From: Geosiphon pyriformis
Lineage: Eukaryota; Glomeromycota; Glomeromycetes; Archaeosporales; Geosiphonaceae
Direction of reading: 5' to 3'
Length of the DNA stretch: 64,000 nt
Assembly (NCBI GenBank): GCA_016748015.1
Contig: JAAOMT010000697.1
Coordinates: 1,011,152-1,075,151, forward strand
Shown: positions 3,387 through 58,570 of the stretch, in pieces
How positions within the stretch are numbered: the first letter of the stretch is position 1
Layout of the letters: every line of letters starts with the position of its first letter
Made by a program: the position numbers and the translations under genes
Notes under the pieces: model-generated
The model's input: the letters and a program-made list of their open reading frames with translations, nothing else
Databases searched by the model: none
Told to the model about the DNA's origin: nothing

Positions 3387-3388
3387 AC

Positions 3389-4027
3389 ATGATAAGAAAT
3401 ATCAAAAAAATGAAAATTACAGACAACATCCACTCACTAGCACAACAATTCTTTTAATTGATTCAACACCAAGAGATGGAAATTACAATTAATCAACAAA
3501 CCATCCAATATCAAGACACTAGAAAAACATTGTCACATAAAACACAGAAGAAAACAGAAAATACTGTTAACAAAATCATGGCAAAAGTAAAATTAGCAAT
3601 AAAAAAGTCACTATATTAAGAGTTGACTAAAAAAACTTGGAATTGGTAGATACAACAATTTCCAAGAAACTATTGTTATTTTTACTTGAAACAACATATG
3701 AATATTCAGAATCTATATATGAATAAAACAAAGCAATTATTTGACACCAGAATACTACAACAATTAGAACATTTTGTGGGAAAGAACAATTTATTCACAC
3801 AAGCCCGAGCCATATACCAAATACACACAGCATTTCAAGATCAACCAGAAATCTTACTCAACAAAGCAATGGATACAGTTATCAGTAATTAATTAAGAAA
3901 AATTACCAATGTTCAATTTAAAAAATTACAGACTCAAATAACACAAGTAATTCTCGAAAATGAAATTCAGGAAATACTTTAAGAAGAGAAATTGACAGAG
4001 TTAGATTTCAATGGAGCTCAATATTAA
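3389..4027 (+). pseudogene. A1 ORF3, unknown protein downstream of integrase (decayed)
   Basis: This is the decayed counterpart of A2 ORF3 (42,380–43,030). The ATG lies 2 bp after the probable pol stop, in a different frame. It is 12 bp shorter than the A2 copy through one in-frame deletion and has several stops (TAA/TAG where A2 has CAA/CAG/TGG). Recognisable blocks are NIQNLYMNKTKQLF, LQQLEHFV and IYQIHTAFQ. No family is recognised. No signal peptide or membrane segment is seen, which argues against an envelope protein. Confidence 0.65.
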
Positions 4028-5420: not shown

Positions 5421-6050
5421 AACTCAAAATTTTTTCATTCCTTTGGAAATATAAACGTTTGGAATTGAGATTTCATGCTTCAAACAGATTTGTTCATTGA
5501 ATTCAAAAATTTGTTGAGTAATAGTGGGTTTTGAGCCAGTGTAAATTTTGTGATGTTCTCCAAAAAGTGAAATAGTAATTGGTTGGGGAAGTTGAAGAAT
5601 CTGGTGAGATTCATTCTGTGTATTGAAAGCTATGTTTACTGGTACTATAAATCGTTCAGTTGAACCAAAACCTTGAGTTCTTCTTTCACTTTTTTCTAAT
5701 TGTTTTTTGTTGTTTATTGATTGTAAACCTAAAATGTTGATTAAAGGTAGGTAAATTGCTTGGGCAATCTTTTCAGTATGTTCAATCTTGAATGGTTTGT
5801 TTGTTTCATTCTGTAACATGATGGTAATATCTCCAGTATATCTTGCATCTATAACTCCTTCTCTAATATTGATTTCTTTGCTTGCCAATAATGATCTGAA
5901 TGCAATTTAAATCATTGCTTCTGGTGGTATTTCAAAAGCAATTCTGAGGTTGATTTTGGTTAAGAATTTTGGTTAAAGAACCAAAGTATCTTTGCCAGGA
6001 TATCTTAAGTTATATTTTACATCAATTTCGTGAGCTTTTTCTGGTTTTAT
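5421..6050 (-). pseudogene. Element B pol: dUTPase domain and following module
   Basis: On the minus strand a dUTPase fold is visible. Motif 1 is degenerate (KYNLRYPG). Motif 3 is well kept (GVIDARYTGDITIML, with the catalytic Asp). Motif 4 is EKIAQAIYLPL and motif 5 is RTQGFGST. A module similar to that of family A follows (QQIFEFNEQI, ISIPNVYI). Family knowledge: such domains hydrolyse dUTP to dUMP and keep uracil out of cDNA. Stops near 5,910 and 5,975 break the N-terminal half. Confidence 0.8.
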
Positions 6051-6960
6051 CCCTCTTTAATTGTTGTCAAAGTATTTGAGTTGTATAGCAGACTGGTTTT
6101 TAATAAAATAAATTGGTGTGATTGCAGTTTCTTCTTTTGTTTCTGGTTTTCCAAATTCAATTTCTTCCTGGTCATTTTTACTGGACAGAGGAATGCTAAG
6201 AGCATAGTATTCTGGACACCATTTGTCATCACAAGACATGATGCATTCTTTACACAATTAAATGTTCATTTGCTCTAATCATTGAATTTGAGCTTCTTGG
6301 GTTGGGTATGTGTGGCTTGCAATTTGGTGGTATGTCTCTACTTTATCTTTATAGTTGAATCCAGCTAATTCCATTGTATACTTAATATATTCAGCTTTTT
6401 TCATTTGGCGGACATTTTCTTGTATAGCTCTATTGATTAATGCCATTGCTAAGTCAAAAATCATTTCAGCATCATAAGGATAGTGGTAGAGTTTATTGAG
6501 AGCACTGTTGCATGCTGCATCAAATAGTGTTCCTCTTCTGACTTTTTCTGAAATTGACAGAGCATATTGGCAGGTTTGATCACATACTCCTCCTCTTATT
6601 GCAACATCAATCTAGTTGCATTCTTTTGATAGCATATCTCCACATATGAGGCAAGGTGTGTTGTCCCATTTTCCACTTCTTTTTGGGGATTCAAATTGTT
6701 CTCTATGGCATGTTTTGCAGAAGTAGTAGGTGCAAGTTTCATATTCCTCTTCTGAGGAAATACATGCTCCTATTGATGAAAGTTTTTTGTTGCAATTTTT
6801 GCATTTGAGTGGAATATAAGATGGTTGTTTCTGTGGTTCTGGTGTAAAATATTTAACTTTCTTCCATCTTCTTGATTCTTCAAAAATTTTCTTTCTGTTT
6901 TTTCAGTCCAATTGGATGTTAATCCAATAGCCATGTAGGTTTCAGTAAGTGGCATTTCTT
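6051..6960 (-). pseudogene. Element B pol: Cys-rich module between protease and dUTPase
   Basis: The minus strand encodes many Cys pairs: CKNCNKKLSSIGAC, EEEYETCTYYFCKTC, KWDNTPCLICGDML, GGVCDQTCQYALSIS, and distally CKECIMSCDDKWC. The same blocks occur in A2 at 37,795–38,657. The spacing suggests zinc binding. No known domain name is recognised. It is broken by a few stops. Confidence 0.65.
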
Positions 6961-7345: not shown

Positions 7346-9440
7346 GAATTTTCCTTCTACTGTAGCTTCAGTGTACATGGCAGTAATAGCTTTTTGTTTA
7401 TTAGCTGCTGTATTACTAAGCAAGAATGGTAATTTATTGGCTTCAAATTCGAATGGAAAAATATCTGAAAGGTTGGCATTTTGGACAATTTGGGCTGGTG
7501 GAATGGTGTTGTTGGAAGGGTTTGATCTTGGTGCTGCAATTTTACCTTCAGAAAGTGCAGGTTGTTAAAAATCCGATTTTTCAGGCATTGTAAGATAACT
7601 GGGTTGAGTGTGATAGTAATTGGGTTTTTGCTGACCAGAATTTCGAAGAACCAACTAGTTATTTGGATTGATTCTGTTGTTGTTATTCTGAAATTGATTT
7701 TGAGGTGTGAATTGGTTATGTTGAACCAATCTTCTGGCTGGTACTTGATATTGTTGAGTGAGTAGTATCTGATATTGCTGAATTGGTAAAGATTGCTGAT
7801 ATTGTTGCTGCATTGATTGTGGAGCTGGTTGATAGTAACTGTTTTAATTTTGTGGTTTTGGTGGATAATAAGTTGGTAGTAGAAGTTGGTAGTAAGATTG
7901 TTGTAGTAAAGAATAATGTTAATTACTCCTGTTTTGTTGGTCTCTTTGTAATTTCCTACAATCTTGTTTCCAGTGTTCTGAGATCCCACAATAATGACAA
8001 CTTTAAGGTTGGTTGTTGGATGGTGATCCAAAGTTGTTTTGGTTGTGTTATTGTGGTAGTTGATATCTTTGGAGTTGCTGCTACTGTTGTTGGTTTGTAA
8101 AGTAGTTTTCAACCTTTTTTGTGAGTTGGTCTATCTTCTTTTTAGCTGTTGAGCTGGTTTCTCTAATAGCTAAGTTTACAAGTTTGGTATGATTTGCTTT
8201 TTTCATTGCTATTTCATAGTTCTTTGTATGTCTAATGACAGTTGATAAGTCTGCTGGTGCATGTGGACAGACTTTCTTAATCAATTTGTCTTTTAATCCT
8301 GCTATAAACTAATCCAGAATCTGAACATTAGAATAGTAGTCATTGGTTTCCAATTGTCAAATTTGTCAAAGAAGTTTGTTGAATCTTCTAAGATAAATCA
8401 TAACAGTTTCAGATATTTCTTGTTTAATATTGCAAAAGCAATTGTAAAGAGTAATAGAGGTGTTGTTGTTAGTGAATTGTTGTAAAAAAGCATCTTTGAA
8501 TGCTTGCCAGTTTTCAAAAGGGTCTTCCAAGTTTTCAAACTATTCTTCTGCAGTTCTTTGAAGAAAGTATGGGATTGCTTTGAGCATTCTTGCTGCATTC
8601 CAACCATTTGTGTCTCCTGCTTTCTAAACTTTGTCAAACCATTCTTGAGGACTGGTATCATTATCTTCACCAATAAATTCTGGAATTTTTGCAATGTAAG
8701 TAGTTGTCATTTCTTTTTCATTCTTTATAATTTCTTCTGATTCTGATTCAGTTTCTTCACTTTCTAAGTTCTTTGAATGATTACTTTTATTTTTTTGTAA
8801 GTACTCAATGATATTAGTGCTGGTTAATATTGGTTCTTGCTGTTGAATAGGATTTCTAGGTGACTGAAAATCTTCTGGTTTGAAGAAATGGTTAAGTGGT
8901 AAATTTGGTGTTTGTGATTGAGCAAGTGAAATTAGAAATGGTGTAATAGAAAGTGGTAATTTGGTACTGGTTTCTTGTTCTGGTGTTTGCAAGTGTTTGG
9001 CAGTTGTCTTTGGGAGTATTGGAGTGTTTGGAGTGGTTCTTGAGTATTGTTTCACTTTTTGTTTGCCTTTGTTGCTTGTTTCTGTTCTAATTCAAAGTCA
9101 AGAGAGTATTTGGGCTGGACTGGGTATTTTTCTTCACAATACTCAATAATATTAAAATTAAGTTCTTGAAAGTAGGTAGCAAGTGTTTTACTGTTCAAGT
9201 TTTCTGTTCCCAATTGTGAATAGTACACTAAATTATTATAGAAGTTGCTTCTAACTTCTGAAATGTTATAGTTTCCAAAAAGATAATTGTTGATGCAGTT
9301 TTCAATATATTAGTATACTGATTTCTTGACAACTTCAATTCCATCTGAGATGTTGAATCTTTGTTTGCAGTGAGTGTAAATTGACTGATAATATTCTAGA
9401 GTTGTTGTGTCTGGTGTGGTCGCCACTTTGAATTTGTTGT
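7346..9440 (-). pseudogene. Element B gag with CCHC zinc knuckle (decayed)
   Basis: The capsid-like part includes AKIPEFIGEDNDTSPQEWFDKV, the same module as KLDNFTGEEDDAQVWLNDV in A2 Gag. A nucleocapsid knuckle SCHYCGISEHWKQDC (CX2CX4HX4C) lies at about 7,953–8,004. Between knuckle and protease is a Gln/Asn-rich stretch. Several frameshifts and stops split the frame. An N-terminal acidic segment precedes the capsid part. Confidence 0.8.
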
Positions 9441-18533: not shown

Positions 18534-21363
18534 TTGGTTTCTAGTAAAGAGTTTGTTGCTTTGTTGGAGGTGTGGCACAGGCTTGATTTCTTTGGTGTGT
18601 CAATGGTGAGGTCTTTGTTTCTTTCAGCTTCTGGTTTTGATCTTATTTGTTCTGCACTGGCCAAAGCGAGGAAGTTGTATCATGCTTCTAAGTTGTTGAA
18701 ATCTAAACATGCTGAGGAATCTTCGATCAAGCAGGCTATTAGTAAGAGGATGGAAAGTTTTGAACTGGACAAGGGTCACACTATTAGGAGTGTTTTGGAG
18801 CATCCCTTTCACAAGATGGTCTTGGATCATCTGATTATGGAAGATGAGTTGATTTTGGAGCCTGATTCTGTTAAATCAAAGGTAGACAAAATCATGGAAG
18901 GGTGGACCAGGAAACATAGGATGGTTTCTAATATCTCCAGAGATTGGGCTCACCAATATTGGCCTCTAGAGTATGTTTTTGATGGTGCTTTTTCTGATGT
19001 CATGTGTCCGATTAGTTTTGATGATATGTCAGCAGTCATCAAGAATCTTTTTAATGAGAAGGCGGCTGGTCTCTCTGGTATCTCTAACAAATTGTGGAAG
19101 TGTTGTGACAAATCAGTTTTGGATATGCTTCTGGTGCTCTTGAACTTGTGTTTAGTTAGTAAGTCAGTTCCTGGACCTTGGAAAGAAGCTTGGGTTTCTA
19201 TGATCCCTAAACTGTATAAATGGGAAAGAGTTCTTATAAACACTCATCCTATTGCTTTAATTGAAATGGCCCACAAGATTCTTTCCAAGATCCTTTCAGA
19301 TAAGATTTCTTTAGCTTGCAGCACTTTTGATGTCTTTCACAGGGACAATTTTTCAGTTCTAAAAGGTACAACAACCCAGTCTCCCATTTTTGCTATTGGT
19401 TTAGTGATTGAAGATGCCCTAGAGAAAAACCGAGAACTCTGGTTGGTTTTACAAGACATGCATAAGGCTTATGACTCAGTTGGTTGGGAACATTTCAAAA
19501 GAAGTCTGGTTAGGATTAAGATGTGTGAAAAGTTTATTAAATTTTTTGGCAGCATTCACAATGGTTGCATTAACAGAGTAATAACTGACTTTGGCCTAAC
19601 TGATGGATATTGTGTTCATGATGGGCTGGACCAAGGGGAAGTTTTCTCTCCTCTTTTCTGGTGTATATTCTACAATTCACACTTGTGTGAAATCAAAAGA
19701 CAGGATAGTGTGTATGGCTACAGATTAAATTCTCATTTTATATCCAAAACTGGCCAGGTGGATCCTCAGGCTGGACTGTCTTCATTTCTTGCTGCTGGTG
19801 CTTTTGTTGATGATACTATTTGGGTTGATAGCAGCCAGGCTGCTACACAATGCATCCTTGATGTTGCTAGTAAGTTTTTCAAATTTAACAATATTTCTGT
19901 AAATAACGACAAAACAATGGCCATTCCCATCAATTGCCGGGTGTTGGACTCTTATTTGACTATCAGTGGTGCACCTATTTCTATTGCCAAGAAAGGGGAA
20001 TCTCATCATTATCTAGGCATTTTTTTATTTTCTGAGGGTCTTTCAAAGTCCAGCTTAGTTAAAGTCCAGGCGGATGTGTGGTTTTTTGTGAATTTAGTTT
20101 TAAAAAAAGCAGTTTCTGATAAACAGTATGCATATTTGGTGTCTGCAGTTCTTTTTCCCATCATTAGTTATAGAACTCAGTTCAGTTTTGTTTCTGTGGG
20201 TGTTTGTAACAAATGGGATGCTCTAATATGCAAGATCTTGAAATCTAAGTTTGGGTTGCTCTGTGATTTCCCCAATAATGCACTGCACCACCCCTCATTG
20301 TATGGTTTAAAGACTTTTGAGCAGATTCAGGCTGAGGGTAAATTGGCATCTGCTGTTACTTTTGCAAATTCTGCTGGTATTTTGGGTTGCCTTTTTTCTT
20401 ATAGGTTTTATGATCTTCAAGTTCTTAGCTGGTGCCTGTGTTATTCTTTGCTGTTTCTATCTTGTATTGGTGTCAATCTTTCAAACAATTTTTTGGCTGG
20501 TGTGGTTCGTATTTTTTCCGGATGTGATTTGTCTTTGGATGGCTCTCTGGCTTGTGCTTTTCACCGATGGTGCGGTATTTCTATGTCTTTGGTTCTTAGT
20601 GAACCCTGTTTTTTTAGGTGTGTTTCTTTGCTCAGATGTTATGAAATTGCTTTTGTGAAACAGCTTTGTGACCATAATGGTAATGTTTTCAGTTGGGGGG
20701 CCTTCAAGTGTTGGAAGAGACTGGACCCTCATGGCCCAATCCCTTTCTGGTTTGATCTCTCCATTCACTTTCTTGGTGGTGTTGGTCTCCTTTCTTCAAG
20801 TTCTTCTTTAGTGGATGGTTATGCTGTGTCAGATATTTGTCTCTCTCATGATTTTGGTGTGGTTTGTGACATTCTGCTAACCACTAATGCTGCCCATCTT
20901 TCTGTGTATACGGATGGGTCTCTGTCTGGTCTGGGCACTGTTGATGTAAAAGCAGGTGCTGCCATTTTTTTTAAGGACATTAACTTGGGTTTGGGAGTTG
21001 GAGTGTTTGGTTTGGTCTCTTCTACTCTGACGGAGCTGCAAGCCATAGCTTTGGCCTTTGAGTGTGTTCTTTCCTCTTGTTCAATTGACTTGTTTTCGGA
21101 TAGCCAAGCTGCTTTGGATGCATATAGGTCAGAGTCTTCATTGGTTCATCTGGATTTCAGGAACCACTGTTGGATTGAGCGTTACCACATTGCTACTATT
21201 ATTTGTTGAAAGAATTTGGATGTGAATTGGGTTAAGGTAAAAGGTCATTCAGGTGTCTCAGGCAATGAGCATGCTGATGCATTTGCCAAAGATACTACTC
21301 TTTCTGCTTGGTGTCTGTCTCATTTAGTTAGTAAACGTTTTCTGTGTGCTAGTGATATGGTGG
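18534..21363 (+). pseudogene. LINE-2 ORF2: RT and RNase H, 891-codon open stretch
   Basis: This is the longest retroelement frame in the window (18,534–21,209, open without stops). The RT shows SMIPKLYKW, LVLQDMHKAYDSVGW, GLDQGEVFSPLFW and the intact active site FVDDT. RNase H shows YTDGS, TELQAIALA, DSQAALDAY and, after a TGA at 21,207, VKGHSGVSGNEHAD. Because endonuclease and ORF1 are broken the element cannot move alone, but the RT-RNase H block could still be translated if initiated. The solo LTR follows. Confidence 0.88.
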
Positions 21364-24611: not shown

Positions 24612-26459
24612 ATGAGTGGCCCTAGTGTTAAGAGAAGGTCAGCCAGAGTTTCAACTACTGGTTTGGTTGGTGGTGGTTCAGGTCATAAAATCAAGAAACC
24701 TCCTGGTGGTGCTAAGCTCTTGAGTAGTAATGCAACTCTTGAAAGTGGTAGATCTGGTCGTGTGGTTGGAGAGTTTAATGGCATGGATACTGATGGTGAA
24801 GCTTCCGAAGGTGAAGAAGTACCTGATTTCAAGATGAATATGTCTCAAGCCAAGCATTTCAATAATGATGCGACTGTTGGCTCCCCTCTCAGCTCTATTA
24901 ATTATGACATAGAAGAAGAAGAGGAAGTTTCCCTTTCCCCCTGTATGTTTTTCTCTTTGAATAAGGTGTGAGTGGATCCCAAAATCATTAAAACTCAAGT
25001 GGAAATGGCCGTGAAAAAATCATTCGCTTTGGACATTAATCTTTTGGCTGTAGAAGGGAAATCGACAATGGCCAAAACTCAGGTCATAAGAAAATTATTT
25101 TCAGGAATCAATGGTTTTGGGGGGGCCACTACCCCCTCAAAATTTGAAAGAATTATCTGATCAATGTTTACTTTGTCTGAGAGCATGGAAAAGACCGCAT
25201 TATTGGCCAGAGCAAATAACATCATAGTAAACAGTGATCTTAAGAGACAAGGAGTTCACTCAGATCAGGCTGTAGTCATCAAAGAGATTCCCATAGATAC
25301 ACCAAAGAAAATGATCATTGCCGCAGTATCTGTATTTGGGGAAATTAAATCAATCAAAATTCAGCTGATCGGAATGTGGCAGAAGGCTGTGGTGGAATTT
25401 GCCAAATCAGGACAGGCAGAGCAATTGGCTTCAAAATGGTCCTTCTTAATTGGGAAAGATTCTGTGCATGTAGCAAAAGCCGTGAGAGATCACAATATCT
25501 GGGCCTCTAGGGATTGTTTTAGGGTGCTTCTGTTTACATTACCAGTAGGAACAACTGCACATGATCTTAGTAATCTGCTGGATAGAACTAGTGGCAGAAC
25601 TTGCATCATTAATTGTTCATTGGACACTGGCAATAGAGTTCATTGTGCTGTGGTTGGCTTTGAATCTGAGAATGATCTGAATTCCACTTTCCTCACTAAG
25701 CCTGTTTTTGGTGGTGTTCATCTTTCTTGGGCTAAGTTGGATTTGGTTTGGTGTGGAAAATGTGGGCATCTTGGTCATTTGGCTTTGGAGTGTGATGCAT
25801 CAGATATGTCATCTTCTGATCTTTTGAATATTTTTAATAAGAGATGTGCTTCTGGTGTGGACTGCCTTCAGTTGGCCAAGTTATACGCGAAAAAAAATGT
25901 TCCTATATCTCATTCTGCTGCCTTTGGTAGCAAGTCATGGATCCAGGTAGTCTCTCTTGCTTCCCCTTCTGGTGGCTCTCCTTCTGGTTCTGGTCTTGGT
26001 GTTGGTTTTCCTTTTCATACAACCTCAGATTTGGGCAGTGGTCCTCCCTCCTTTACAATCACTGATTCTTCTTTGAATGCTCGCTTGGCATCTTTGGAAC
26101 ACTCTCTTGAGTTATTGGCTGACCAAGTTTCTGGTATTTTAAGAAAATTGAGTTTTGTTGAATTGGTGCTCATGGTTCCATCTTCTGGTGCCCCTCTTTT
26201 GGTTGGCTCTATGCCTTTGGCCCCTGTTTTGGATTTTGACATGGCTCTGAATGGTAAGCTGGCATCATCCAATCCCCATTTTCCAAGTGTTGATATGGAT
26301 GCTGGCTTTAATTCGAGTAGTTCGAAGATTCTAACTACCAAGGTGGATGGTTTAGAGTCTAAGATGTCGGCTCTGGAGGCTTCTGTCAGTTCTGTTTTGG
26401 CTAGATTAGATCTTTTGTGTTCTGGTTCAGGTTCATTGGCTCTCCTTTTTTTTCAATGA
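24612..26459 (+). pseudogene. LINE-3 ORF1 (two in-frame stops)
   Basis: A frame of 615 codons starts at ATG 24,612 (MSGPSVKRR) and has only two internal TGA codons (24,969 and 25,158), where other copies have Trp/Cys and Gln. Module 1 is RRM-like (AVVIKEIPIDTPKKM, FGEIKSIKIQ, KAVVEFAKSG). Module 2 is similar (RVLLFTLPVGTTAHDL, HCAVVGFESE). A CCHC knuckle CGKCGHLGHLALEC lies near 25,755–25,796. The C-terminus has heptads (LTTKVDGLESKMSALEASV). The presumed role is binding LINE RNA as an RNP. Confidence 0.85.
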
Positions 26460-27184: not shown

Positions 27185-29668
27185 ATGCACAAGCAGACTA
27201 ATAAAGATTGTTGGAAGTTCAATTTTGGAGATGCTGGCGAGAAAGGATGGAACAATTTTAAGGATGCTATGTTGACCAATAGCATAATGTGCTCGAGTGA
27301 TTTCACTGCCTCTGTGGAATCTTCAGATTTGGATGCTATGTGGGACATTGTGCACAAAATAATGATTCTCTCAGTGGTTAGAACATTCAAAAAGAAATGG
27401 TTTAAGAGTTATGATAAGGTTTTTACCAAGAGTTCTTCTAGGTTTCACAAGCTTGAGTTGCTTGTGTCCAAGCTGATTAAGGCATCTCGTTTGTTGTCTA
27501 GTGTAGAATTTGTGTTGTTGTTAAATATGTGAGAGAGACTCGATGTCAATAGTGCTTCGGTGGTAAAGTCTTTGTTTCTGTCAGGTTTCAATTTTAACAT
27601 GATTTGTTCAGCTCTGGCTAAGGCGAGGAAGTCTTACCACTCTGCTAAGTTGCTGGAATCCAGACATACTGAGGAATCCTGTATTAGGGCAGTTATTGAT
27701 AGAAGGATGGAGCATTTTGAATCAGACAAAGATCGCACCATCAGAAGTGTTTTGGAGTATCCCTTTCGCAAAGTGGTACTGGATCATCTAGTTGTAGGTG
27801 ATGAGTTGATTTTGGAGCCCAGCTTAGTCAAAGCTAGGGTGAATGGAATCATGGAAGGCTGGACCAAAAAGCGCAAGATGGTGCCTAATATCTCTGATAA
27901 TTGGTCTCGCCAATACAAGCCTTTGGAGTATGTTTTTAATGGTGTGTTTTCTGGTGTAATGTGTTTTATTGGTTTCAATGAGTTGTTTAGTGTGGTTTCT
28001 GGTCTGTCTGAAGGCAAGGCTGCTGGTCTCTCTGGGATTTCAAACAAGCTCTGGAAACACTGTGACAAATCAATTTTGGATATGCTTTTGATGCTTCTAA
28101 ATTCTTGTTTGATTCATGAGTTTGTGCCTAGTGCTTGGAAGGAAGCTTGGGTCTCAATGATTCCTAAGCCATATGAGTGGAAAGGAGTTTTTACAAACAC
28201 TCAACCTATTGCCTTGATTGAGACTGCCTGCAAGATTCTCTCCAAGATTCTTTCAGATAGGATCTTGTTGGCTTGTAGTACTTTTGATGTTCTGCATAGG
28301 GACAATTTTTTGGTTTTGAAAAGCACAATGACACAGTCTCCCATTTTTGCCATTGGTTTAGTTATTGAGGATGCTTTGGAGAAGAATTGTGAGCTCTGGT
28401 TGGTATTGCAGGACATGCGGAAAGCTTATGATTCTGTTGGGTGGGAACACCTTCGGAACAGTTTGGTTAGGATAAAAATGTGCAGCAGGTTTATTAGGTT
28501 TTTTGGTGGCATCCACAATGGTCGCGTCAACAGGGTTATGACAGATTTTGGTTTGACAGATGGGTATGAGGTGCATGATGGCTTGGACCAGGGAGAGGTG
28601 TTCTCACCACTCTTTTGGCACATCTTTTATGATCCTCTTTTGTGTGAAGTTAAGAAGCAGGCAGATGAGTGTAGTTACAGATTGAATTCTCATTTTATTT
28701 CCGGATGTGGTCGTACTGAGTCTCGGGCTGATGTATCTTCATTTTTTGCAGTGAGTGCCTTTGTTGATAATACTATATGGGTTGGCAGCAGTCGAAGTGC
28801 TACACAGCACATTCTTACCGTTGCTAGTGAATTTTTTGATATCAATGACATCTCGATTAATAATGATAAAACTGTTGTCATCCTCATCAATTGTGATAGT
28901 ATGGCTTCCTCTTTGTTGATCAGTGGGTTACCTATTTCTATTGCCAAGAAGCGGGAATTGCATTGCTATTTGGGGATCTATTTGTCAACTGAGGGTTTTT
29001 CGAAGCTTAGCTTGGCTAAAGCACATTCTGATGTCTGGTTTTTTTCTAATTTGGTCCTAAAAAAGGCAGTGTTTGATAAGCAGTTTTCATATTTGGTTTT
29101 GGCAGTCCTCTTTCTTATTGTTGGATATAGAATACAGTTCAGTTATGTTTCTATTAGTGCTTGTAAAAAATGGAACACTTTGATTCATAGGGGCTTAAGA
29201 TCTAAGTCTGGTTTGCTGCATAATTTCTCCAATGATGCGATTCATCATCTCTTTCTGTATGGTTTGAAGACTTTTGAACAGGTTCAGGCTGAGAGTAAAT
29301 TGGCTTCGGTCGTTTCTTTTGCGAACTCTGTTGAGATTTTGGGGTGTCTATTTTCTCACTGGTCGCATGATCTGCAAGTCCTCTGCTGGTGTCCACTACA
29401 TCCTTTGCAGTGTCCAGTCCATGTAAAGATCAATCCTCTTAATAATTTTCTGGCAGGTGTGGTGCATATTTTTTCTGGGTATGATTTGTCATTGGGTGGC
29501 TCTCTGGTTAGCGCTTTTCGTTGGCAAGGTGGAACTCTTATGTCCCTTGTTCTTGGTGAATTGAATTATGTCAAGAGTGTCTCTTCACTTTGGTGTTATG
29601 GGATTGCTTTTGTGGATCAGCTGCGGGACCAAAATGAGGCTGTTTTCGAATGGAAGACCTTCAAATAA
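27185..29668 (+). pseudogene. LINE-3 ORF2: reverse transcriptase with FVDN active site
   Basis: It is open in one frame except for TGA near 27,530. The RT blocks are SMIPKPYEW, LVLQDMRKAYDSVGW, GLDQGEVFSPLFW and INNDKTVV. The catalytic box reads FVDNT instead of FVDDT (LINE-2), a GAT to AAT change, so the enzyme should be inactive even though the frame is long. Confidence 0.87.
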
Positions 29669-33831: not shown

Positions 33832-34665
33832 TATTAGTCATAGAAATATAGGAAATATATTAGCATAATTAGTAGCCAATCAGAAGTAGGTGTAGTAAAT
33901 GAGGAATTCCAGAATTCCTCTCAGGAATTGCAGGATTCCAGAAATTTCAGGATTCTCTGACAAGAAATTGCAAGATTCTAGGAATTCCAGAATTCCTGTC
34001 ATAAAGAATTGAGGAATATTAATTATGTATATATAGCAGTAGGATTAAAAGCTGAAAAGACAGACCTCCCAGTTTAGATTTAATCTAAGCAACTTTCCAG
34101 TTCCCAATCATCAAATAAAATAATTATTCAATATTTCAACCCATTCTTTACTATCAACACTTCATGTTGATAGTAATTGATACTTAACCATGCTGGAACA
34201 ATAGCTCTTGATCACGGCTATTGACAAGATACTAATGTACTAAATTGCCTTGGCTTATTTTCTCTATTTTTTTTATTTTATTTTCTTTATTTTATTTTCT
34301 TTCTTTTTTTGATTTTGTTGTCATATGCTAATTGATTAAAAGATTAAGCACTGAGTTATTGATGTCAAGAATAGCCTGGTAAAAGACCCAGAAATAAGGG
34401 TAGGATTTTATATATTATTGGATAGCTTACCAGAAGGACATGACTGCCAGACTAAATTCGGCCACCACACTGAAAAAGAAATTGAGAAAACTTTTAAAAA
34501 GATACATCTACCATCAACACTATTGAATCTCTGTCTATTATACAAAAGACTCCATCAAAACTTTCAGATACAACACTTGCAGAACCTCATCCATGGAAGT
34601 AGCTTTTGAGCACCAAGTTACAGATTTGGTATTTAATTCAACAGCAGAAATAATCACCTGTAACA
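33832..34665 (+). repeat. 5' LTR of A2 (834 bp)
   Basis: It starts TATTAGTCATAG and ends CCTGTAACA. It is preceded by GCAG (33,828–33,831) that recurs after the 3' LTR. Confidence 0.92.
33898..34036 (+). promoter_or_regulatory. A2 5' LTR: GAATTCC array and TATA box
   Basis: Degenerate GGAATTCC/CAGGATTCC units span 33,898–34,010. TATGTATATATAG lies at 34,024–34,036. The arrangement equals that in the A1 LTR, so it is a likely U3 promoter. Confidence 0.55.
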
Positions 34666-36900: not shown

Positions 36901-37049
36901 CCTCAACCAATAACCTGGCATTTACCCAAAAACAACCACTCACTAGTAATATCTCACCCACTACCATCACTGAAGACAAGTCTTTGGCTGCTATCTTCCC
37001 ATTCAAATTTGAGGAAACAACTATAATGTCATTATTTAGTTGAGCCGCT

Positions 37050-37400
37050 CTTGAAGCCAAACCAATCACCACAATGTACACTGATGCCAAAGTCAAGGGA
37101 CAATTCATCAAATTGATCCTTAACAGCAGTTCAGCAGGCAGCATCATCACATGACAACTCATGGATCAATTAGATTACCGAGTTGATCAAGCTGCCAGTG
37201 CCAGAATCATTACAGCCAATGGAGCGATCAAAACTCCAATTGGCAAAATTGACAACTTCCCTTTCAAAGTCAATGGTATCATGACTCCTATTAAAGTTCT
37301 AGTGATGGAAGCCACCTAATACCAATCTCTTGTTGGTAATGACTGGCTATCTAAAGTCAATGCGACATTAGACTGGAACATCCAGGAACTCCAGCTAATA
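37050..37400 (+). pseudogene. A2 aspartic protease, catalytic Asp lost
   Basis: It aligns with the element B protease (VKGQFIKLIL, ASARIITANG, VLVMEAT, GNDWLSKVNATLDW). The active site reads LILNSSSAGSII at about 37,116–37,151, where B has LILDSGS. The catalytic Asp is Asn (AAC at 37,122–37,124), so it should be inactive. Confidence 0.82.
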
Positions 37401-37794
37401 TATCAGGGCCGACACATACGTGTACCGGCCACATGTGGCCATTTCAAGACTCCTCCAAGAGAGAAACTATTGATCGAACTGGAGGAGGAAAAAGAAAAAC
37501 CTACTTGGGAAGCTTACCAAGTCTTCTGGACCGACGCCGACCACAACGAACTACTACCAATACTCTTGTAGAACAACAACCCTAAGGGAAAGCAAAAAGA
37601 GAAACTGACCTGGGAAACAGACGATTTGACCTGGACTGACAATGAACAGGAAAAACCATCGAGTTGGGAGTGGAAAAAAAAAAAGAGAAAAAGAAAAGAA
37701 AGGGAGAAAGAAAACACTCAAGCCAACAACACTTATATTCCATACACCTACAGTTAACAACAATCATTGACCTATCGCTAACCCAAACTAATAT
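37401..37794 (+). pseudogene. A2 linker: acidic, Trp-rich, then Lys/Arg-rich
   Basis: The translated gag-pol frame carries repeated acidic-Trp blocks (KPTWEAYQVFWTDAD, LTWETDDLTWTDNE) followed by a basic run (KKKKRKRKERERK) at about 37,675–37,712. No known domain is seen. The basic run could act as a nuclear localisation signal, but that is inference. Stops are present. Confidence 0.5.
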
Positions 37795-38657
37795 GCGTTG
37801 ATTATGGTAAGAAATTGTTATCAATGGGCACATGCTGTGACAACGATGAAGAATATCAGACAGCAACCAAGTTCTATTACCATGCATGCTATGTCAAATG
37901 TTTTGAAAGACCAAAACAAGTAAAAAAATGGGATAATACACCATGTATAGCCTGTAAAGAAACTCTCTTCGACAAAGGAATGTGGAATGACATTCCGGGG
38001 AGAGGAGAAACGTGCGACGTGTCCTGCCAATACACGATCCTCATCAGCGACTGAGTCGAGAAAGGAACACCTATAAAAGCTGTCTGGAGAAGAGCTGTAC
38101 AGTGATTGGACAGTTGTCCACATGATGATAATGAATTATGGTGAATAGCAATCGCCAAAATTGAAGGTGCATTACCAGAAGAAATCAGGATAATTAAAAA
38201 CAACCCACCAGAACCCATCAAGCTTGACTGGAACGCAGAGCCAGTCATAAATTTTCTGGAACCAGAAGAGTTCTATGAACACTACCAAAACTTGGCACTC
38301 ACTAGAAAAGAGCAAAAATAATGGCTAGCACAGTTGAATACAAGACTGTGTTGCCATTGTTTAATTCTCAGTGACTTTGAATATTGTGATAATTGTGACC
38401 TCATTTACAATCCACTATCATGCATGATCTACACGATTCCTGAAGAAGAAGAACCAATCAGCAGCTGTACATTGAAATCAAAATCGCTGATCAATCGCGA
38501 TCCAGACTCCGATGATAATGACGAAAACACCAGTTCCAGCTCTGTTCAAAATGGCAATAACAACAAAGACGATTCAAACTCAGATTCAAACTCCAATTTA
38601 AACTATGAACAATACATTGCACTACCAGATCTCTCCAAGAAACAAGAATTGAAATAG
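37795..38657 (+). pseudogene. A2 Cys-rich module between protease and dUTPase
   Basis: Block one: LLSMGTCC, EEYQTATKFYYHAC, KKWDNTPCIACKETL, GRGETCDVSCQYTILIS. Block two: LCCHCLILSDFEYCDNCDLIYNPLSC. The same two blocks, with the same Cys pattern, occur in element B (6,051–6,960) although the two families are far apart in sequence. This points to a real, selected zinc-binding domain. An acidic stretch (PEEEEP, DSDDNDE) leads to the dUTPase. No known family is recognised. Four or more stops occur (near 38,053, 38,104, 38,140 and 38,320). Confidence 0.65.
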
Positions 38658-39105
38658 TATAGTGACAATGGGGAAGGTATTATGCCAGAACATGCGCACA
38701 ATACTGATGCAGGATTTGATTTGAGATATCCAGGAACAGAAGCCATCAAATTGGAACCACATATGCACACCTGTATCGATTTGAAAGTAGCACTGGAAAT
38801 TCCAGCAACAACAATGGTTCAATTAACATCTAGGAGTAGTCTAGCGAAAAGAGTGATTAATATAAAAGGAGAAATAATTAACACGGAATATATAGGAAAC
38901 ATCATCACTATGCTACAAAATGACTCAGACAAGGCCTATGTAATAGAGCCCAATGAAAAGATAGCACAGACAATATTCCTGCCTCTGGTTAGAGTAGCTT
39001 AGTTAGTATCAGTGGGAAAGAGGGAGAAATTAGAAATAACAGCAAGAAGAATACAGGGATTCGGATCAACGGGTAGAATAGATGTACCAGTTAATATGGC
39101 AGAGG
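38658..39105 (+). pseudogene. A2 dUTPase domain in pol
   Basis: All five trimeric dUTPase motifs are present: DAGFDLRYPG (1), SRSSLAKR (2), GEIINTEYIGNIITML (3), NEKIAQTIFLPL (4) and RIQGFGSTG (5). Motif 3 has Asn where the family has its catalytic Asp (element B keeps it as GVIDARY). One TAG at 38,999–39,001 replaces a Gln seen in A1. Family role: dUTP to dUMP plus PPi. It lies between the Cys-rich module and RT. Confidence 0.88.
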
Positions 39106-39497: not shown

Positions 39498-40905
39498 TTG
39501 GAACAAATGAACATGGGAAACTTAGATCTACTCCAACGTATGCAACTCAAGATGTTGCTCAACCAGTTCAATAACATCTTTGCCAGCAAAAATGAGTTTG
39601 GCCAAACTAACATCATCCAGCATCAGATCAAGACTGAAGATGCAATGCCAATTAAACAAAGAGCATACAGAGTGCCACCAGTTAGCAAGATTATTTGTCA
39701 AGAGATAAACCAAATGCTTAACAATGGGCTAATTCAGCCATCCATAAGCCCATGGTCATCACCAGTGGTACTCGTCCATAAGAAGAATAGAAAGATCTGA
39801 TTTTGTGTGGACTACAGAAAATTCAATGGTGTAACTCATGGAGACAGCTATTCAACTTCACAGATACAGGAATTATTTGATGCTTTAGAAACAAATAGTT
39901 CTCAACATTGGACTTAGATAGTGGTTACTGGCAAGTAGCCATGGATCCAGCCAACAAAGAGAAGACGGCATTCACCACGAGAGAAGAGAATTTTGAATTT
40001 GAAGTAATGCCATTCAGTTTAACCAATGCACCAGCCACTTTCCAATGGCTAATGGAAATCATCTATACTGGCTTATTGTGGAAATCAGTAGTTGTATACT
40101 TGGATGACACCAATGTATTCTCAAAAACATTTGATGATCATCTTTATCATCTTCAACAAGTGTTCAAAAGACTAAAAAGAGCAAAGCTAAAGTTAAATGC
40201 AACAAAGTGCTTCTTTGGCAAGACAGAGCTAAAATTCTTGGGACACATAGTCAGCAAAGATGGCATCAAAACAGACTCAGAAAAAATAGAGATAGTAAAG
40301 AACTTTCCAGTGCCAACTAATATGACAGAACTGAAATTATTCTTGGAATTTGCCAGCTATTATTGACGTTTTATCAAGAACTTTTCCAAAATAGTGCAGC
40401 CACTCAACCAACTGCAAACCAAGAATACCAAATATGAATGGACAGAAAGTCAACAAGAAGCTTTTGACATTTTGAAAAGAAAGCTCATTCAAGCTCCAGT
40501 ACTGATTTATCCAGATTACAGCAAACTATTTATTATCACCACTGATGCATCTGGCCAAGCATTGGGAGCAGTATTATCTCAGAGGGGACCAGATAACAGA
40601 AAACATCCAGTAGCATATTCCAGTAGAGATTTAATGCCAGCCGAAAAGAACTATAAAACACTGGAACAAGAACACTTAGCAATATACTGGGCAGTCATGA
40701 AATGGAAAGAATACTTGAGCCAGAAGTTTGAAGTATACACAGACCACAAGGGATTAACATCACTCCAAAAACAAGAATTTGGAGATGGAAGACAGTCAAG
40801 ATAGAAAATGGCACTCGCACTATACAATTATACTATACATTACAAAAAGGGAAAAGACAACAGAAATCCTGACGGTTTATCGCGAATAAGACAAATCTAA
40901 GAATA
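39498..40905 (+). pseudogene. A2 reverse transcriptase and RNase H
   Basis: RT motifs: FCVDYRKFNG (after a TGA at 39,798), TLDLDSGYWQVAM, MPFSLTNAPATFQ, the intact box YLDDT (40,097–40,111) and FLGHIVSKDGI. RNase H: FIITTDASGQALGAVLSQ and LAIYWAVMKWKEYL. A 4-bp deletion near 39,886 and stops at 40,364 and 40,801 break the frame, so it is not functional although the catalytic Asp pair is intact. Confidence 0.9.
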
Positions 40906-42376
40906 TTTTAACCCAAAAATATAATAAAACCAGAACAATACCAACAAAAAATACAACAAAAAGATGAACATACAAAAATGTCAACAATTGCAACATTATC
41001 TAAACACTCAACAGTTCAAGGAGAATTTATCTCAAATGGAACAAAAGAGGATCAAACAACAATCAAAATATTTTATCACTTATCAAAATATACTTTATCA
41101 GAAAAATAGGAGGGATTCAGATCAGCCAATCAGAGTAATTACAGAGCCAGAGAAAAAGACAATATTATTTAATATGCACTCAAATCCAACAGCCAGACAT
41201 TTTTACAAAGAAGCAACCATAGAAAGAACCAGAAAAAGATACTATTGGCCATCAATATATCCAAACATCATCCAATATGTTCAAAATTGTGATGCTTGTC
41301 AGCGAAGAGAAGGAACAAGACCCAGTAAACCATTAAGACCAATCAAAATGAAACAACCATTCGACCGGATTGGAATTGATTTAGTTGGACCATTAACAAT
41401 CACCAACAGAGGAAACAGATATATAGCAGTAGCTATGGACTATCTCACTAAATGGCCAGAGGCAAAAGCAATGCAAAGAGCGGATGCAGAATCCGTTGCC
41501 GAATTCATTCATCAAGATTTAATTTGTCGACACGGATGTCCAAAGGAATTATTATCAGACCAAGGAACTCATTTTGTGAACAGAACATTAATAGAATTGA
41601 GCCAAAAATTCAGAATTAAGAGACCATTATTATCACCATACCATCCACAAACCAATGGATTAGTTGAAAGATTCAACAGAACATTGTGTGAAGCAATTGC
41701 CAAACTCAGCCAAGAAAACCAAGACGAATGAGATTTGTTCATACCATCAGTATTATTTGCTTATCAGACAATGAAGCAAGATACTACACAAGCAACACTA
41801 TTCGAATTAGTATACAGTAGAACAGCAATATTACCAGTAAAGAGAGAAATTAATACATATCCAGCTGAACCAATAACAGAAGAGAATTTTCAAGAAACAT
41901 TGCTAAGAAGAACATATGACTTAATGGAAACATTGGAAAACAAACAAAGAAAAGCAGCTAATAATATTCAAAAGTCACAAGAGAAACAGAAAAAAAAACA
42001 TGATAGTCAACTACTAAACAAGCCAGTTGAATTCAAGATTGGAGACAAAGTACTCTTATATTGTACCAAAGTGGAAAAACAATGGAGTGGAAAATTTGAC
42101 CCCAAATAGGATGGGCCATTTCACATAGAAAAAATTCTAAGAAATGGAGCTTACAAATTAAGACTGGATAACAAAATTTTAACCAAAGCAGTACATGGAG
42201 ATCAACTGAAACCATACCACAACATCATACTACCATCTATCAGTAATATTCCACAATTAGGAGTACAGAGAATACTAGTCCAATCAGATAAGATTCCACA
42301 AGATCTGGAACCAATAGTTATTATTGACAACAACACGTTAAATTGATTCAGCAAAAAAATATATAAAGACACAGTA
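40906..42376 (+). pseudogene. A2 integrase
   Basis: Zinc-binding HHCC (HSNPTARHF, NCDACQ), DDE core (GIDLVGP, SDQGTHF, NGLVERFNRTL) and a C-terminal SH3-like block (FKIGDKVLLYC). The main open piece is 40,964–41,731. Stops are at 41,729 (TGA), 42,107 (TAG for TGG in A1) and near 42,343. Pol likely ends just before ORF3. Confidence 0.9.
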
Positions 42377-43043: not shown

Positions 43044-43863
43044 TATTACTCATAGAAATATAAGAAATATATTAGCATGATTAGTAGCCAATTAGAAATA
43101 GGCATAATAAATGAAGAATTCCAGAATTCCTCTCAGGAATTGCAGAATTCCAGAAATTTCAGGATTCTCTGATGAGGAATTGCAGGATTCCAGGAATTCC
43201 AGAATTCCTGTCATAAAGAATTGAGGAATATTAATTATGTATATATAGCAGTAGGATTAGAAGCTAAAAAGACAGACCTCTCAGTTTTAGATTTAATCTA
43301 AGCAACATTCCAGTTCCCAATTATCAAATAAATAATTATTCCATATCTCAACCCATTCTCTACTATCAACACTTCATGTTGATAGTAATTGATACTTAAC
43401 CATGCTGAAACAATAGCTCTTGATCACAGCTATTGACGAGATACTAACATACTAAATTGCCTTGGCTTATTTTCTCTATTTTCTTTATTTTATTTTCTTT
43501 CTTTTTTTGATTTTGTTGTCATATGCTAATTGATTAAAAAATTAAGCACTGAGTTATTGACGTCAAGGATAGCCTGGTAAAAGACCCAGAAATAAGGGTA
43601 GAATTTTATATATTATCGGATAGCTTACCAGAAGGGCATGACTGCCAGACTAAATTTGGCCATCATGCTGAGAAAGAAATTGGGAAAACTCTTGAAAAAA
43701 TATATCTACCATTGACACTATTGAATCTCTGTCCATTATACAAAGGACTCCATCAAAACTTTCAGATACAACACTTGCAGAATCTCATTCACGGAAGTAG
43801 CTTTTGAGTACCAAGTTACAGGTTTGGTATTTAATTTAACAGCAGAAATAATCACCTGTAACA
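43044..43863 (+). repeat. 3' LTR of A2 (820 bp)
   Basis: It starts TATTACTCATAG and ends CCTGTAACA, followed by GCAG and LINE-4 endonuclease sequence. The GAATTCC-type array and TATA box are repeated here (about 43,110–43,250). Confidence 0.92.
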
Positions 43864-55026: not shown

Positions 55027-55153
55027 GAAATTTAATAAAATTAGGTCGAAAGGTTCTGACTTATTCTTGGACTTTACTTTAAAATTTGATAAGCGGTACT
55101 CCTTAAAGTAATTGCACAAGACTCGGTAATTTCAGACGTGCGTCGATAGCATT
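53779..55153. other. Intergenic region between PNP and copper ATPase
   Basis: Mixed-composition DNA without a convincing gene. A 42-codon ORF at 54,521–54,649 (MSTVRALNYR start) is too short to support. It contains an (AAT) run at 54,997–55,026. It should include the ATPase promoter. Confidence 0.6.
54997..55026 (+). repeat. (AAT)n microsatellite
   Basis: About ten AAT units, roughly 130 bp upstream of the copper ATPase start codon. Confidence 0.85.
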
Positions 55154-58100
55154 ATGGAAGAACTTGGAGAGGACCTACTTTTTGACGAGAAAACTACGCA
55201 TATACTGATTCCGGTTAAAGGAATGACGTGTAAATCTTGCGTCAATTCCATTTTAAGCGTAGTTTCGCCATTGTCTGGTGTATCAAGTTGCGAAATAAGT
55301 CTCGAGAAGGAAGAGGCAAACATCATCTATGATCCGACTAAAGTTACAAAGGCTAAAATAATTGAAATCATCGAAGATTGTGGTTTTAACGTTCCGACTG
55401 ACGAAAATATATTGGCATTAGAAAATTCCCTTTTGGCAGAAATACTGTTAGGATCATCAAACGCTCAATCAGTTATTACTTTGCCTGTTAAGGGCATGAC
55501 ATGCATGTCTTGTGTGAATTCGATTACCAATGCATTAAAATTAATAAAAGGGATTCAAAGTGTTGATATCAGCTTAAAAGATGAACAGGCTACAGTTGAA
55601 TTTGATTCCGGAAAATTAACCAAGGAAAAAATTATTGAGGTAATTGAGGACTGTGGATTTGTGGTACCAATTGTGACATCCAAGAAATCCAATGATCTCT
55701 CACAAATCGTCCCCGATACAAATATTTTTGCCAACATCGCTCTCAAGACTCCCCCTTCAAAACAATCTACCTTCCCATTAATATCTGTAAATTCACATTC
55801 ATTCTCATCAGAAAGTATTCGCGTTGCTCAATTGAAAGTACAAGGAATGACTTGCGCTTCCTGTGTAAATAGCATTGAAAGATCTCTCGGCGCATCATCG
55901 GGAATCATTTCGGTTAAAGTTTCATTATTGGCTGAGCGTGCTACCATTGAATATAATTCAGAGATTGTAGATGAAAAACGAATTGAAGAGATGATTAATT
56001 CAATTGGATTTGACGCTTCCCTTATTATTCAGAAACGCCAAGATACTGCCGAATTACGAATATTTGGCTTGTCGAGTGGAGCTTGTCTCAGTACACTTGA
56101 GCAGGAACTTTGTAAATCTCGGGGTGTCCTTAAAGTTTCCATAATTTTGGAGATAGAAAAGGCTCTCATTCAATTTGACAAGGAGATACTTGGCTTACGA
56201 GATATTGTTAATTTAATCAAAGAACTGGGATATCATGCTGTATTATGGGACAATACGCGTAATGCACAGCTTGAATCATTAAATCGAACACGAGAAATTG
56301 GAGAATGGCGAAATTCATTCTTTAGATCACTTGCTTTCGCTTTTCCTGTATTTATTATATGTATGATTTTGCCTGAATTTGAATGGGGCTCAAAACTTGT
56401 TGGAAAAAAGTTATTACCAGGGATTTACAGTGGTGATCTTACTTCTTTAATTTTAACAATTCCTGTCCAATTCGGTGTTGGCAAAAGATTCTACAAGTCT
56501 TCATACAAGGCACTTAAACATGGTACTGCAACAATGGATGTTTTAGTTGCGTTGGGCACATCTTCAGCTTTCTTCTTTTCTTGTTTTGGGATGTTTTATG
56601 CTCTTTTTGATCCGATGCATATAAAACCATCGACATTTTTCGATACTTCCACAATGTTAATAACATTTGTCACACTCGGTAGATATTTAGAAAATGTTGC
56701 AAAAGGAAAAACATCAGCAGCTTTATCCAAATTAATGTCGCTCACTCCGTCGACTACCACCATTATTCACAAAGACCCCAAAATTGGAGAAATTATCAGC
56801 GAGGAAAAAATTTTTACCGAATTAGTTCAAGTTGGTGATATAGCAAAAATTCTACCTGGTGATAAAATACCAGCTGATGGTACTGTAATTTCAGGAGCTT
56901 CAACAATTAATGAGTCCTTAATTACTGGAGAAGTTGAACCAGTCGACAAGCAGCCAGGGGATCCGGTAATTGGTGGAACGGTCAATTGCTTGGGAACATT
57001 TGAAATGCAAGTTACGCGGGCTGGTAATGACACCGCATTGGCACAAATTGTTAAGCTTGTAGAAGAAGCTCAAACCTCGAAAGCACCTATTCAAGAATTC
57101 GCTGATACAGTGGCTGGATATTTTGTCCCAGTTGTTATTACGTTAGCCATTATTACATTTTTCATTTGGATCGTTTTATCACATCTTTTGAATCCAGTCC
57201 CAGAAATATTTCATCATGAGAGCAGTTATTTTGTTGTTTGCCTTAAACTTTGTATTTCGGTCGTTGTAGTTGCATGTCCATGTGCTTTAGGATTAAGTAC
57301 ACCAACAGCTATGATGGTTGGGACGGGAGTTGGTGCTCAAAATGGGATTTTAATTAAAGGAGGTGGTCCACTTGAAGCAGGAAATAAGGTTACGAAAGTA
57401 GTATTTGACAAAACTGGAACGCTCACCAAGGGACAATTACATGTTGTTCAACATGAAATCTTGTCAGATAATTTGAGTTTGAGTGCCGAGAAATTTTTTG
57501 CCATTGTGGGAGCAGCAGAGTCATCAAGTGAACATCCTCTTGGAAGAGCTATCTCACAATTTGGTAAAACTCGATTGGGAATAGAACATTATGATGCTGA
57601 GATTACTGATTTTCATGCAATCCCTGGATCGGGCATAGAGTGTAACGTACTTCACAATGCTTCTTATTCACTCCCTAATGGATCGATAAAATCTATACCA
57701 AAATCATCAACTGCAACCTCATATAATGTTTTAATCGGTAATGCAAGTTTTCTCACAGATCATCATCAAATCGTGATTCCAAAATCGGCAATTGTTATGA
57801 TGGAGGCACAAGAGCAACAAGCTCATACAGCAGTTCTAGTGGCAATAAATAATTCATTTACTGGTCTAATATTCTTATCAGATACCATCAAACCCGAAGC
57901 AAAACTCACTGTCGCCGCTTTACATAATATGGGGATATCTGTGGCGATGGTTACCGGAGATCAAGAACTAACAGCGCGAGCTATTGCAGCAAAATGTGGA
58001 ATTACCGAGATTCATGCTGGGATATCACCAAAAGGTAAAACCAAAATCATAAAATCGCTTCAACGCTCTGGAAATATTGTCGCTATGGTTGGTGATGGTA

Positions 58101-58570
58101 TTAATGATTCGCCAGCATTAGCAGCCGCCAATGTAGGGATCGCGTTATGTAGTGGCACTGATATTGCAATGGAGGCAGCTGATATAATTTTAATGGGTCA
58201 TGATTTGACTGATGTTGTTGCAGCACTCGATCTTTCACGGTCAATCTTTCGACGTATCAAAATGAACTTTATGTGGGCATGTGTCTATAACATCTTGGGA
58301 ATACCTTTAGCCATGGGATTTTTTGTCCCATGGGGTTATCATCTAAATCCAATGGTGGCTGGTGCAGCGATGGCATTCTCAAGTGTGAGTGTTGTATGTT
58401 CAAGTCTAATGTTGAGATTTTGGCAAAAACCTCAATGGATAGATGATGGGAAAAGTGGTGTGGAAAGGGTTAAGTCCAGGGATAATAGTTGGTTCAATGG
58501 GATTGTTCACCGGAACAAGCAGCGTTCAAAACAGGGATATGACCGAGTTCCTATAGGTGAAGATATTTAA
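55154..58570 (+). CDS. CCC2: P1B-type copper-transporting ATPase, 1,138 aa, no introns
   Basis: Exports Cu(I) from the cytosol into the secretory pathway (Ccc2/ATP7 family). Three N-terminal metal-binding domains carry GMTCxxC at residues 23–29, 114–120 and 231–237. A fourth HMA-like fold at about 299–365 has lost CxxC (GLSSGACLSTLE). The membrane part follows (helices from about 388). Actuator: TGE at 591–593. Ion site: CPC at 708–710, with YN 1045–1046 and MxxSS 1073–1077 as expected for Cu. Phosphorylation: DKTGT with Asp752. Nucleotide domain: SEHPLG (His794), and GDGIND 980–985. Length is typical. The start is the ATG just after GCGTCGATAGCATT. All catalytic residues are present, so it is functional by sequence. 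Confidence 0.95.
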   Translation: MEELGEDLLFDEKTTHILIPVKGMTCKSCVNSILSVVSPLSGVSSCEISLEKEEANIIYDPTKVTKAKIIEIIEDCGFNVPTDENILALENSLLAEILLGSSNAQSVITLPVKGMTCMSCVNSITNALKLIKGIQSVDISLKDEQATVEFDSGKLTKEKIIEVIEDCGFVVPIVTSKKSNDLSQIVPDTNIFANIALKTPPSKQSTFPLISVNSHSFSSESIRVAQLKVQGMTCASCVNSIERSLGASSGIISVKVSLLAERATIEYNSEIVDEKRIEEMINSIGFDASLIIQKRQDTAELRIFGLSSGACLSTLEQELCKSRGVLKVSIILEIEKALIQFDKEILGLRDIVNLIKELGYHAVLWDNTRNAQLESLNRTREIGEWRNSFFRSLAFAFPVFIICMILPEFEWGSKLVGKKLLPGIYSGDLTSLILTIPVQFGVGKRFYKSSYKALKHGTATMDVLVALGTSSAFFFSCFGMFYALFDPMHIKPSTFFDTSTMLITFVTLGRYLENVAKGKTSAALSKLMSLTPSTTTIIHKDPKIGEIISEEKIFTELVQVGDIAKILPGDKIPADGTVISGASTINESLITGEVEPVDKQPGDPVIGGTVNCLGTFEMQVTRAGNDTALAQIVKLVEEAQTSKAPIQEFADTVAGYFVPVVITLAIITFFIWIVLSHLLNPVPEIFHHESSYFVVCLKLCISVVVVACPCALGLSTPTAMMVGTGVGAQNGILIKGGGPLEAGNKVTKVVFDKTGTLTKGQLHVVQHEILSDNLSLSAEKFFAIVGAAESSSEHPLGRAISQFGKTRLGIEHYDAEITDFHAIPGSGIECNVLHNASYSLPNGSIKSIPKSSTATSYNVLIGNASFLTDHHQIVIPKSAIVMMEAQEQQAHTAVLVAINNSFTGLIFLSDTIKPEAKLTVAALHNMGISVAMVTGDQELTARAIAAKCGITEIHAGISPKGKTKIIKSLQRSGNIVAMVGDGINDSPALAAANVGIALCSGTDIAMEAADIILMGHDLTDVVAALDLSRSIFRRIKMNFMWACVYNILGIPLAMGFFVPWGYHLNPMVAGAAMAFSSVSVVCSSLMLRFWQKPQWIDDGKSGVERVKSRDNSWFNGIVHRNKQRSKQGYDRVPIGEDI

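What the first reader, a model, noticed from the sequence alone, without database searches (positions are those of the whole stretch)
37795..38657. Unrecognised Cys-rich module shared by two Ty3/gypsy families, sited between protease and dUTPase
Elements A2 and B are distant in sequence, yet both carry the same Cys pattern (KWDNTPCxxC, then CDxxCQY and a distal CxxC pair) in the same place. Conserved Cys between divergent elements suggests selection for a zinc-binding domain. I know of no domain with this signature in LTR retrotransposon pol genes. It could be a nucleic acid or host-factor binding module added to pol.
Basis: partly seen in the sequence, partly recalled or inferred. Interest (0 to 1): 0.82.

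Follow-up and report, generated by a model that had tools for sequence, protein, structure and literature searches.

The report
Cysteine-rich module in fungal retrotransposons
Two related families of jumping genes in the fungus Geosiphon pyriformis carry the same unrecognised cysteine-rich protein segment between their protease and their dUTP-cleaning enzyme, probably a zinc-held docking piece that natural selection kept.

Summary
A module of about 215 residues with 13 cysteines in register lies between protease and dUTPase in two Ty3/gypsy families (A2, here family A, and B). One A and one B module align at 39.7% identity over 209 columns; 13 Cys columns coincide (18 in A, 17 in B, 1.4 expected). 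Of 72 full modules read, 71 have dUTPase downstream and 71 protease upstream. Both window copies are decayed; stop-free copies exist elsewhere. The genome is Geosiphon pyriformis. CDxxCQY as DNA occurs 1413 times against 1 for the reversed pattern. Median dN/dS between sampled A copies is 0.25. Pfam, NCBIfam, PHROGs and PDB sequences gave no credible match. The 120 listed hits in each of three protein searches are Geosiphon; 54, 114 and 118 more were not listed. Structure models were poor, so the fold is open. I read it as a zinc-stabilised accessory domain, most likely a docking piece joined to the dUTPase. dUTPase between protease and RT, and an extra zinc knuckle beside it, are in print for other elements: a new variant of a known kind.

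The parts
33832..34568 (+). 5' LTR of element A2 (three repeated pieces)
   Evidence: direct repeats 92-93% identical, spacing 9198-9212
37044..37400 (+). protease region of A2, decayed; approximate bounds
   Evidence: translation; Pfam protease hits in other copies
37788..38444 (+). Cys-rich module of A2, decayed: 4 in-frame stops, Tyr at two shared Cys
38349..38396 (+). distal CxxC-x8-CxxC of the A2 module
   Evidence: translation and coordinates
38445..38627 (+). acidic Ser/Asp-rich linker to dUTPase
38646..39077 (+). dUTPase region of A2, decayed; approximate bounds
   Evidence: GFGST motif 39057-39071; PF00692 in other A copies
39902..40366 (+). reverse transcriptase piece of A2
   Evidence: PF00078 E 1.2e-24
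40931..41731 (+). integrase piece of A2 (H2C2 and core)
   Evidence: PF17921, PF00665
43044..43766 (+). 3' LTR of element A2
6183..6809 (-). Cys-rich module of element B, decayed: 3 in-frame stops, Tyr at the last Cys
5640..6060 (-). dUTPase region of B; approximate bounds
   Evidence: GFGST motif 5658-5672; PF00692 in B copy L051

Best explanation
The module is an accessory domain of the Pol polyprotein in a dUTPase-bearing Ty3/gypsy lineage that multiplied in Geosiphon pyriformis. Shown: position, homology of A and B, 13 conserved cysteines, purifying selection. Inferred: it folds around zinc, probably three ions (CxxC...CxxC; CxxC...CxxxC; a distal CxxC-x8-CxxC, plus an extra Cys at position 16), with a helical stretch between. 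Proposed mechanism: after cleavage by the element's protease it stays joined through an acidic flexible linker to the dUTPase and works as a docking piece, holding dUTPase (perhaps RT) in the particle or on a partner protein so that dUTP is removed where cDNA is made. Docking to protein is favoured over broad nucleic-acid binding because most of the module is acidic. My estimates: folded zinc-binding domain 0.85; docking or tethering 0.4. The confidence below is for the whole statement.
For: A-B homology 39.7% over 209 columns, 265 bits against 5.1 for the best of 500 shuffles. 13 shared Cys columns, each kept in 35-41 of 41 A and 26-31 of 31 B copies. Full proximal spacing in 10 of 11 stop-free modules, distal spacing in 10 of 11. 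Median dN/dS 0.25 for 300 sampled A-A pairs, pN/pS falling from 0.56 to 0.31 with divergence. Protease upstream in 71 of 72, dUTPase downstream in 71 of 72; one open frame of 716 aa holds all three in a B copy. dUTPase motif strings readable in both families (motifs recalled). Charge pattern. A zinc part N-terminal to dUTPase is published for betaretroviruses, with placement near RT suggested (PMC4531489, passages).
Against: No zinc measured. Both AlphaFold models are weak (mean pLDDT 58.3 and 59.4, pTM 0.34 and 0.36) and gave no fold match. Position 16 gives an odd number of shared Cys. Nothing shows that module and dUTPase stay joined after proteolysis. No partner is known. B-B dN/dS is 0.66, near neutral decay.
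Confidence: 0.4

Rival explanations
1. A second nucleic-acid-binding (nucleocapsid-like) zinc domain in Pol that binds element RNA or cDNA and helps reverse transcription.
For: First Cys set basic, +3 (A) and +4 (B); NC-dUTPase fusions bind nucleic acid (PMC4531489, passages); an extra Zn knuckle follows dUTPase in bdelloid Juno elements (PMC5408684, passages).
Against: The rest of the module sums to -17 (A) and -19 (B); CX2CX4HX4C in 0 of 11 modules; a CCHC knuckle stands in the same frame upstream, in the gag part of B copy L051.
Confidence: 0.25
2. A structural scaffold or spacer: zinc sites only stiffen the chain between protease and dUTPase and help precursor folding or assembly; no outside partner.
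For: Fixed place and narrow spacing to both neighbours within each family; acidic flanks.
Against: 13 Cys and dN/dS 0.25 among A copies are more constraint than a spacer would need (inference).
Confidence: 0.2
3. A distant member of a known zinc-finger class (treble clef, GATA-like or zinc ribbon) whose sequence has diverged past recognition, with that class's usual role.
For: GATA-type spacing CX2CX17-18CX2C in 10 of 11 modules, relaxed RING-like spacing in 3 of 11; one of 11 members touches Pfam double zinc ribbon at E 6.1; predicted helices start beside C31/C34 and C76/C80 (weak model; treble-clef reading recalled).
Against: No Pfam match near a curated cut-off in 11 of 11 members; C3HC4 RING, LIM, PHD and C2H2 spacings in 0 of 11 each.
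Confidence: 0.4

Closest known systems
Fungal gypsy elements with dUTPase (PosPlaTy3-5, Postia placenta; PMC2864245, passages)
   Same: Ty3/gypsy element of a fungus with dUTPase between protease and RT.
   Different: The passages seen mention no Cys-rich module; the carrier is a basidiomycete.
Bdelloid rotifer Juno elements (PMC5408684, passages)
   Same: dUTPase between protease and RT, with an extra Zn knuckle next to it.
   Different: There the knuckle follows the dUTPase; here a 13-Cys module of about 215 residues precedes it.
Betaretroviral NC-dUTPase fusion (PMC4531489 and PMC8961515, passages)
   Same: A zinc part N-terminal to dUTPase in one polypeptide.
   Different: There it is gag nucleocapsid made by frameshifting; here a non-CCHC, mostly acidic domain lies in pol downstream of protease.

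Membership tests
Ty3/gypsy LTR retrotransposon (the carrier) | gag, protease, RT, RNase H, integrase domains between LTRs, RT before integrase | tested here: met
   Pieced from several copies: Retrotrans_gag (P0138, P0068), protease (L051, L042), RT and RNase H (L045), RT then integrase in A2; LTRs of A2. No RT tree was made.
dUTPase (neighbour) | PF00692 above curated cut-off and catalytic motifs | tested here: met
   L040, L039, L041, L038, L051 and L045; five motif strings in L051 and L038 (motif set recalled). Activity not tested.
Retroviral CCHC nucleocapsid knuckle | CX2CX4HX4C | tested here: not met
   0 of 11 stop-free modules
RING finger (C3HC4) | ligand order and spacing | tested here: not met
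   0 of 11 for C3HC4; a relaxed all-Cys/His form matches 3 of 11
LIM domain | ligand order and spacing | tested here: not met
   0 of 11
GATA-type finger | CX2CX17-18CX2C with family sequence | tested here: inconclusive
   spacing in 10 of 11, no Pfam match
A fold in the PDB | structural match | tested here: inconclusive
Zinc-binding domain | bound zinc | not testable with these tools
   only conserved Cys pairs

The most novel reading that the evidence does not exclude
A new zinc-domain family, so far seen only in retroelements of one early symbiotic fungus, that couples Pol-borne dUTPase to a specific host or particle partner and helped this lineage reach thousands of copies.
Probability: 0.2. 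Interest if true: 0.7.

Novelty: new variant of a known kind. Interest (0 to 1): 0.45.

Why it matters
Fixation of extra conserved domains in LTR retrotransposons is considered rare (abstract of PMC9289625). This is an uncatalogued, selected domain in abundant dUTPase-bearing elements of a fungus that houses cyanobacteria (symbiosis recalled) and whose assembly is given as 64.35% repeats (PMC9453076 Table 1, passages). A profile of it would help clean annotation: the 120 relatives listed in each of three searches are Geosiphon 'hypothetical proteins'. It also gives a testable case for why dUTPase in retroelements is repeatedly found next to zinc parts.

Tried and rejected
Rejected: chance. Rejected: convergence of A and B. 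Rejected: free-standing host genes; the four 164-aa gene models looked at (P0246, P0249, P0250, P0253) start at a Met inside the module and end where other copies have a stop, so I take them for element fragments. Considered: programmed readthrough at the stop repeated in B (column 182: 14 stops, 13 Gln, 3 Arg of 30 distinct copies). Transitions at CpG are about two to four times as frequent as at other dinucleotides, so decay of an Arg codon holding CpG would explain it; the ancestral codon was not established.

Led nowhere: internal repeat test (first against second Cys set, 11 columns, probability 3%); PDB profile search (one match, prefoldin, E 0.46); NCBIfam and PHROGs (single-member matches, best E 0.016); viral contigs (108 pattern matches, 0 relatives); AlphaFold and fold searches. 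The BLASTP on whole open frames listed the dUTPase part but not the module; module against module gives E 1e-47.

Limits: protein searches listed 120 of 174, 234 and 238 hits, so relatives in other fungi may lie unseen below. No fungal genome but this one was searched. Genome searches scored 150 of 2954-3581 first-look candidates, so copy numbers are rough. Module counts use 72 of 88 hit frames from 79 sources; the other 16 frames did not span the module. Two loci repeat the window copies, leaving 70 distinct; counts keep them. All loci were fetched as matches to the module or its motif.

Full report
What is there. The window lies in G000, 124.7 Mb, contig C317. Listed protein relatives are named Geosiphon pyriformis, and contig lengths agree (541392 for C403, 2055023 for C366), so this is the Geosiphon genome. 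A2 is an LTR element (LTRs 33832-34568 and 43044-43766, 92-93% identical). Between its protease and dUTPase lies the module, 37788-38444. Element B, on the other strand, has it at 6183-6809. Both copies carry stops and have lost two (A2) or one (B) of the 13 shared cysteines.

Copies elsewhere. The DNA form of CDxxCQY occurs 1413 times against 1 for the reversed pattern. Three module pieces gave 3581, 2954 and 3500 first-look candidates; 150 each were scored and all 150 matched at E <= 0.001. PF00692 gave 3181 candidates, 150 scored and matching. From 78 loci and the window, 88 frames hit and 72 span the module (41 A, 31 B; 70 distinct); 11 of 72 are stop-free. In one B copy (L051) protease, module and dUTPase share one open frame of 716 aa. 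Of 72 modules, 71 have dUTPase downstream and 71 protease upstream (L052 misses the first, L014 the second). These loci were fetched through the module, so this says what goes with a module, not what goes with a dUTPase.

Do the cysteines correspond? Yes. One A and one B module align over 209 columns at 39.7% identity. Thirteen Cys columns are shared, against 1.4 expected from 18 and 17 in 214 (p 8.5e-14), the strongest excess of any residue; 92 of 214 columns agree overall. Each shared Cys is kept in 35-41 of 41 A and 26-31 of 31 B copies; most family-specific Cys are kept less well. The spacing CX2CX9CX14CX2CX18CX2CX19CX3C is present in 10 of 11 stop-free modules and CX2CX8CX2C in 10 of 11. 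The test treats columns as independent and does not test zinc.

Selection. Median dN/dS is 0.25 for 300 sampled A-A pairs, and pN/pS falls from 0.56 to 0.31 with divergence, as expected when old change was constrained and recent change is decay. A-B gives 0.40 (291 of 300 pairs usable, dS 1.6, near saturation). B-B, closer and decaying, gives 0.66.

What it is not. No Pfam family comes near its cut-off in the 11 stop-free modules. NCBIfam, PHROGs and PDB sequences gave single weak matches. CCHC, C3HC4 RING, LIM, PHD and C2H2 spacings are absent (0 of 11 each), relaxed RING-like spacing occurs in 3 of 11, an HHCC-integrase-like string in 5 of 11 and GATA-like spacing in 10 of 11, none backed by a profile match. 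Three searches of 5.8 billion proteins listed 120 hits each, all Geosiphon hypothetical proteins; 54, 114 and 118 hits were not listed, so absence from other species is not shown.

Mechanism. The first Cys set is basic; the sets after it, the helical part and the linker to dUTPase are acidic. With the position before a dUTPase whose motif strings are readable, I favour a zinc-stabilised docking piece that holds dUTPase, perhaps RT, where cDNA is made. The parallel is the betaretroviral NC-dUTPase fusion, for which placement at sites of reverse transcription was suggested (PMC4531489, passages). Nucleic-acid binding and a pure scaffold stay open.

Known and new. dUTPase between protease and RT is published for Postia placenta gypsy elements (PMC2864245, passages) and bdelloid elements, with an extra Zn knuckle after dUTPase in Juno (PMC5408684, passages). 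The listings of paper searches showed no report of this module; I read passages of six papers only, most subscription journals are not held, and the Geosiphon genome paper was not seen. Verdict: an uncatalogued domain in a known kind of element.

Noticed in passing
modules of loci L001-L078 and the window: Copies decay mainly by G>A and C>T; rates at CpG are about two to four times those at other dinucleotides and CpA is not raised, which looks like methylated-CpG decay rather than CpA-type RIP (interpretation recalled). G>A exceeds C>T in both families.
   Followed up: partly
L045:800-3259 (-), residues about 384-446: Between dUTPase and RT lie about 240 further residues with a sub-cut-off match to spumavirus aspartic protease PF03539 (E 0.0021); the same Pfam label is precomputed for several listed Geosiphon proteins. 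Possibly another beta-rich domain.
   Followed up: no
protein records listed: Pieces of these elements are annotated as many separate 'hypothetical protein' genes of Geosiphon, several cut at internal stops, which would inflate gene counts.
   Followed up: partly
55130-58570 (+): Open frame of 1146 aa with HMA domains and E1-E2 ATPase: a heavy-metal P-type ATPase, apparently a host gene.
   Followed up: no
18534-21209 and 27533-29668 (+): Two long reverse transcriptase frames (PF00078), probably non-LTR elements; a CCHC motif lies at 25752-25793.
   Followed up: no
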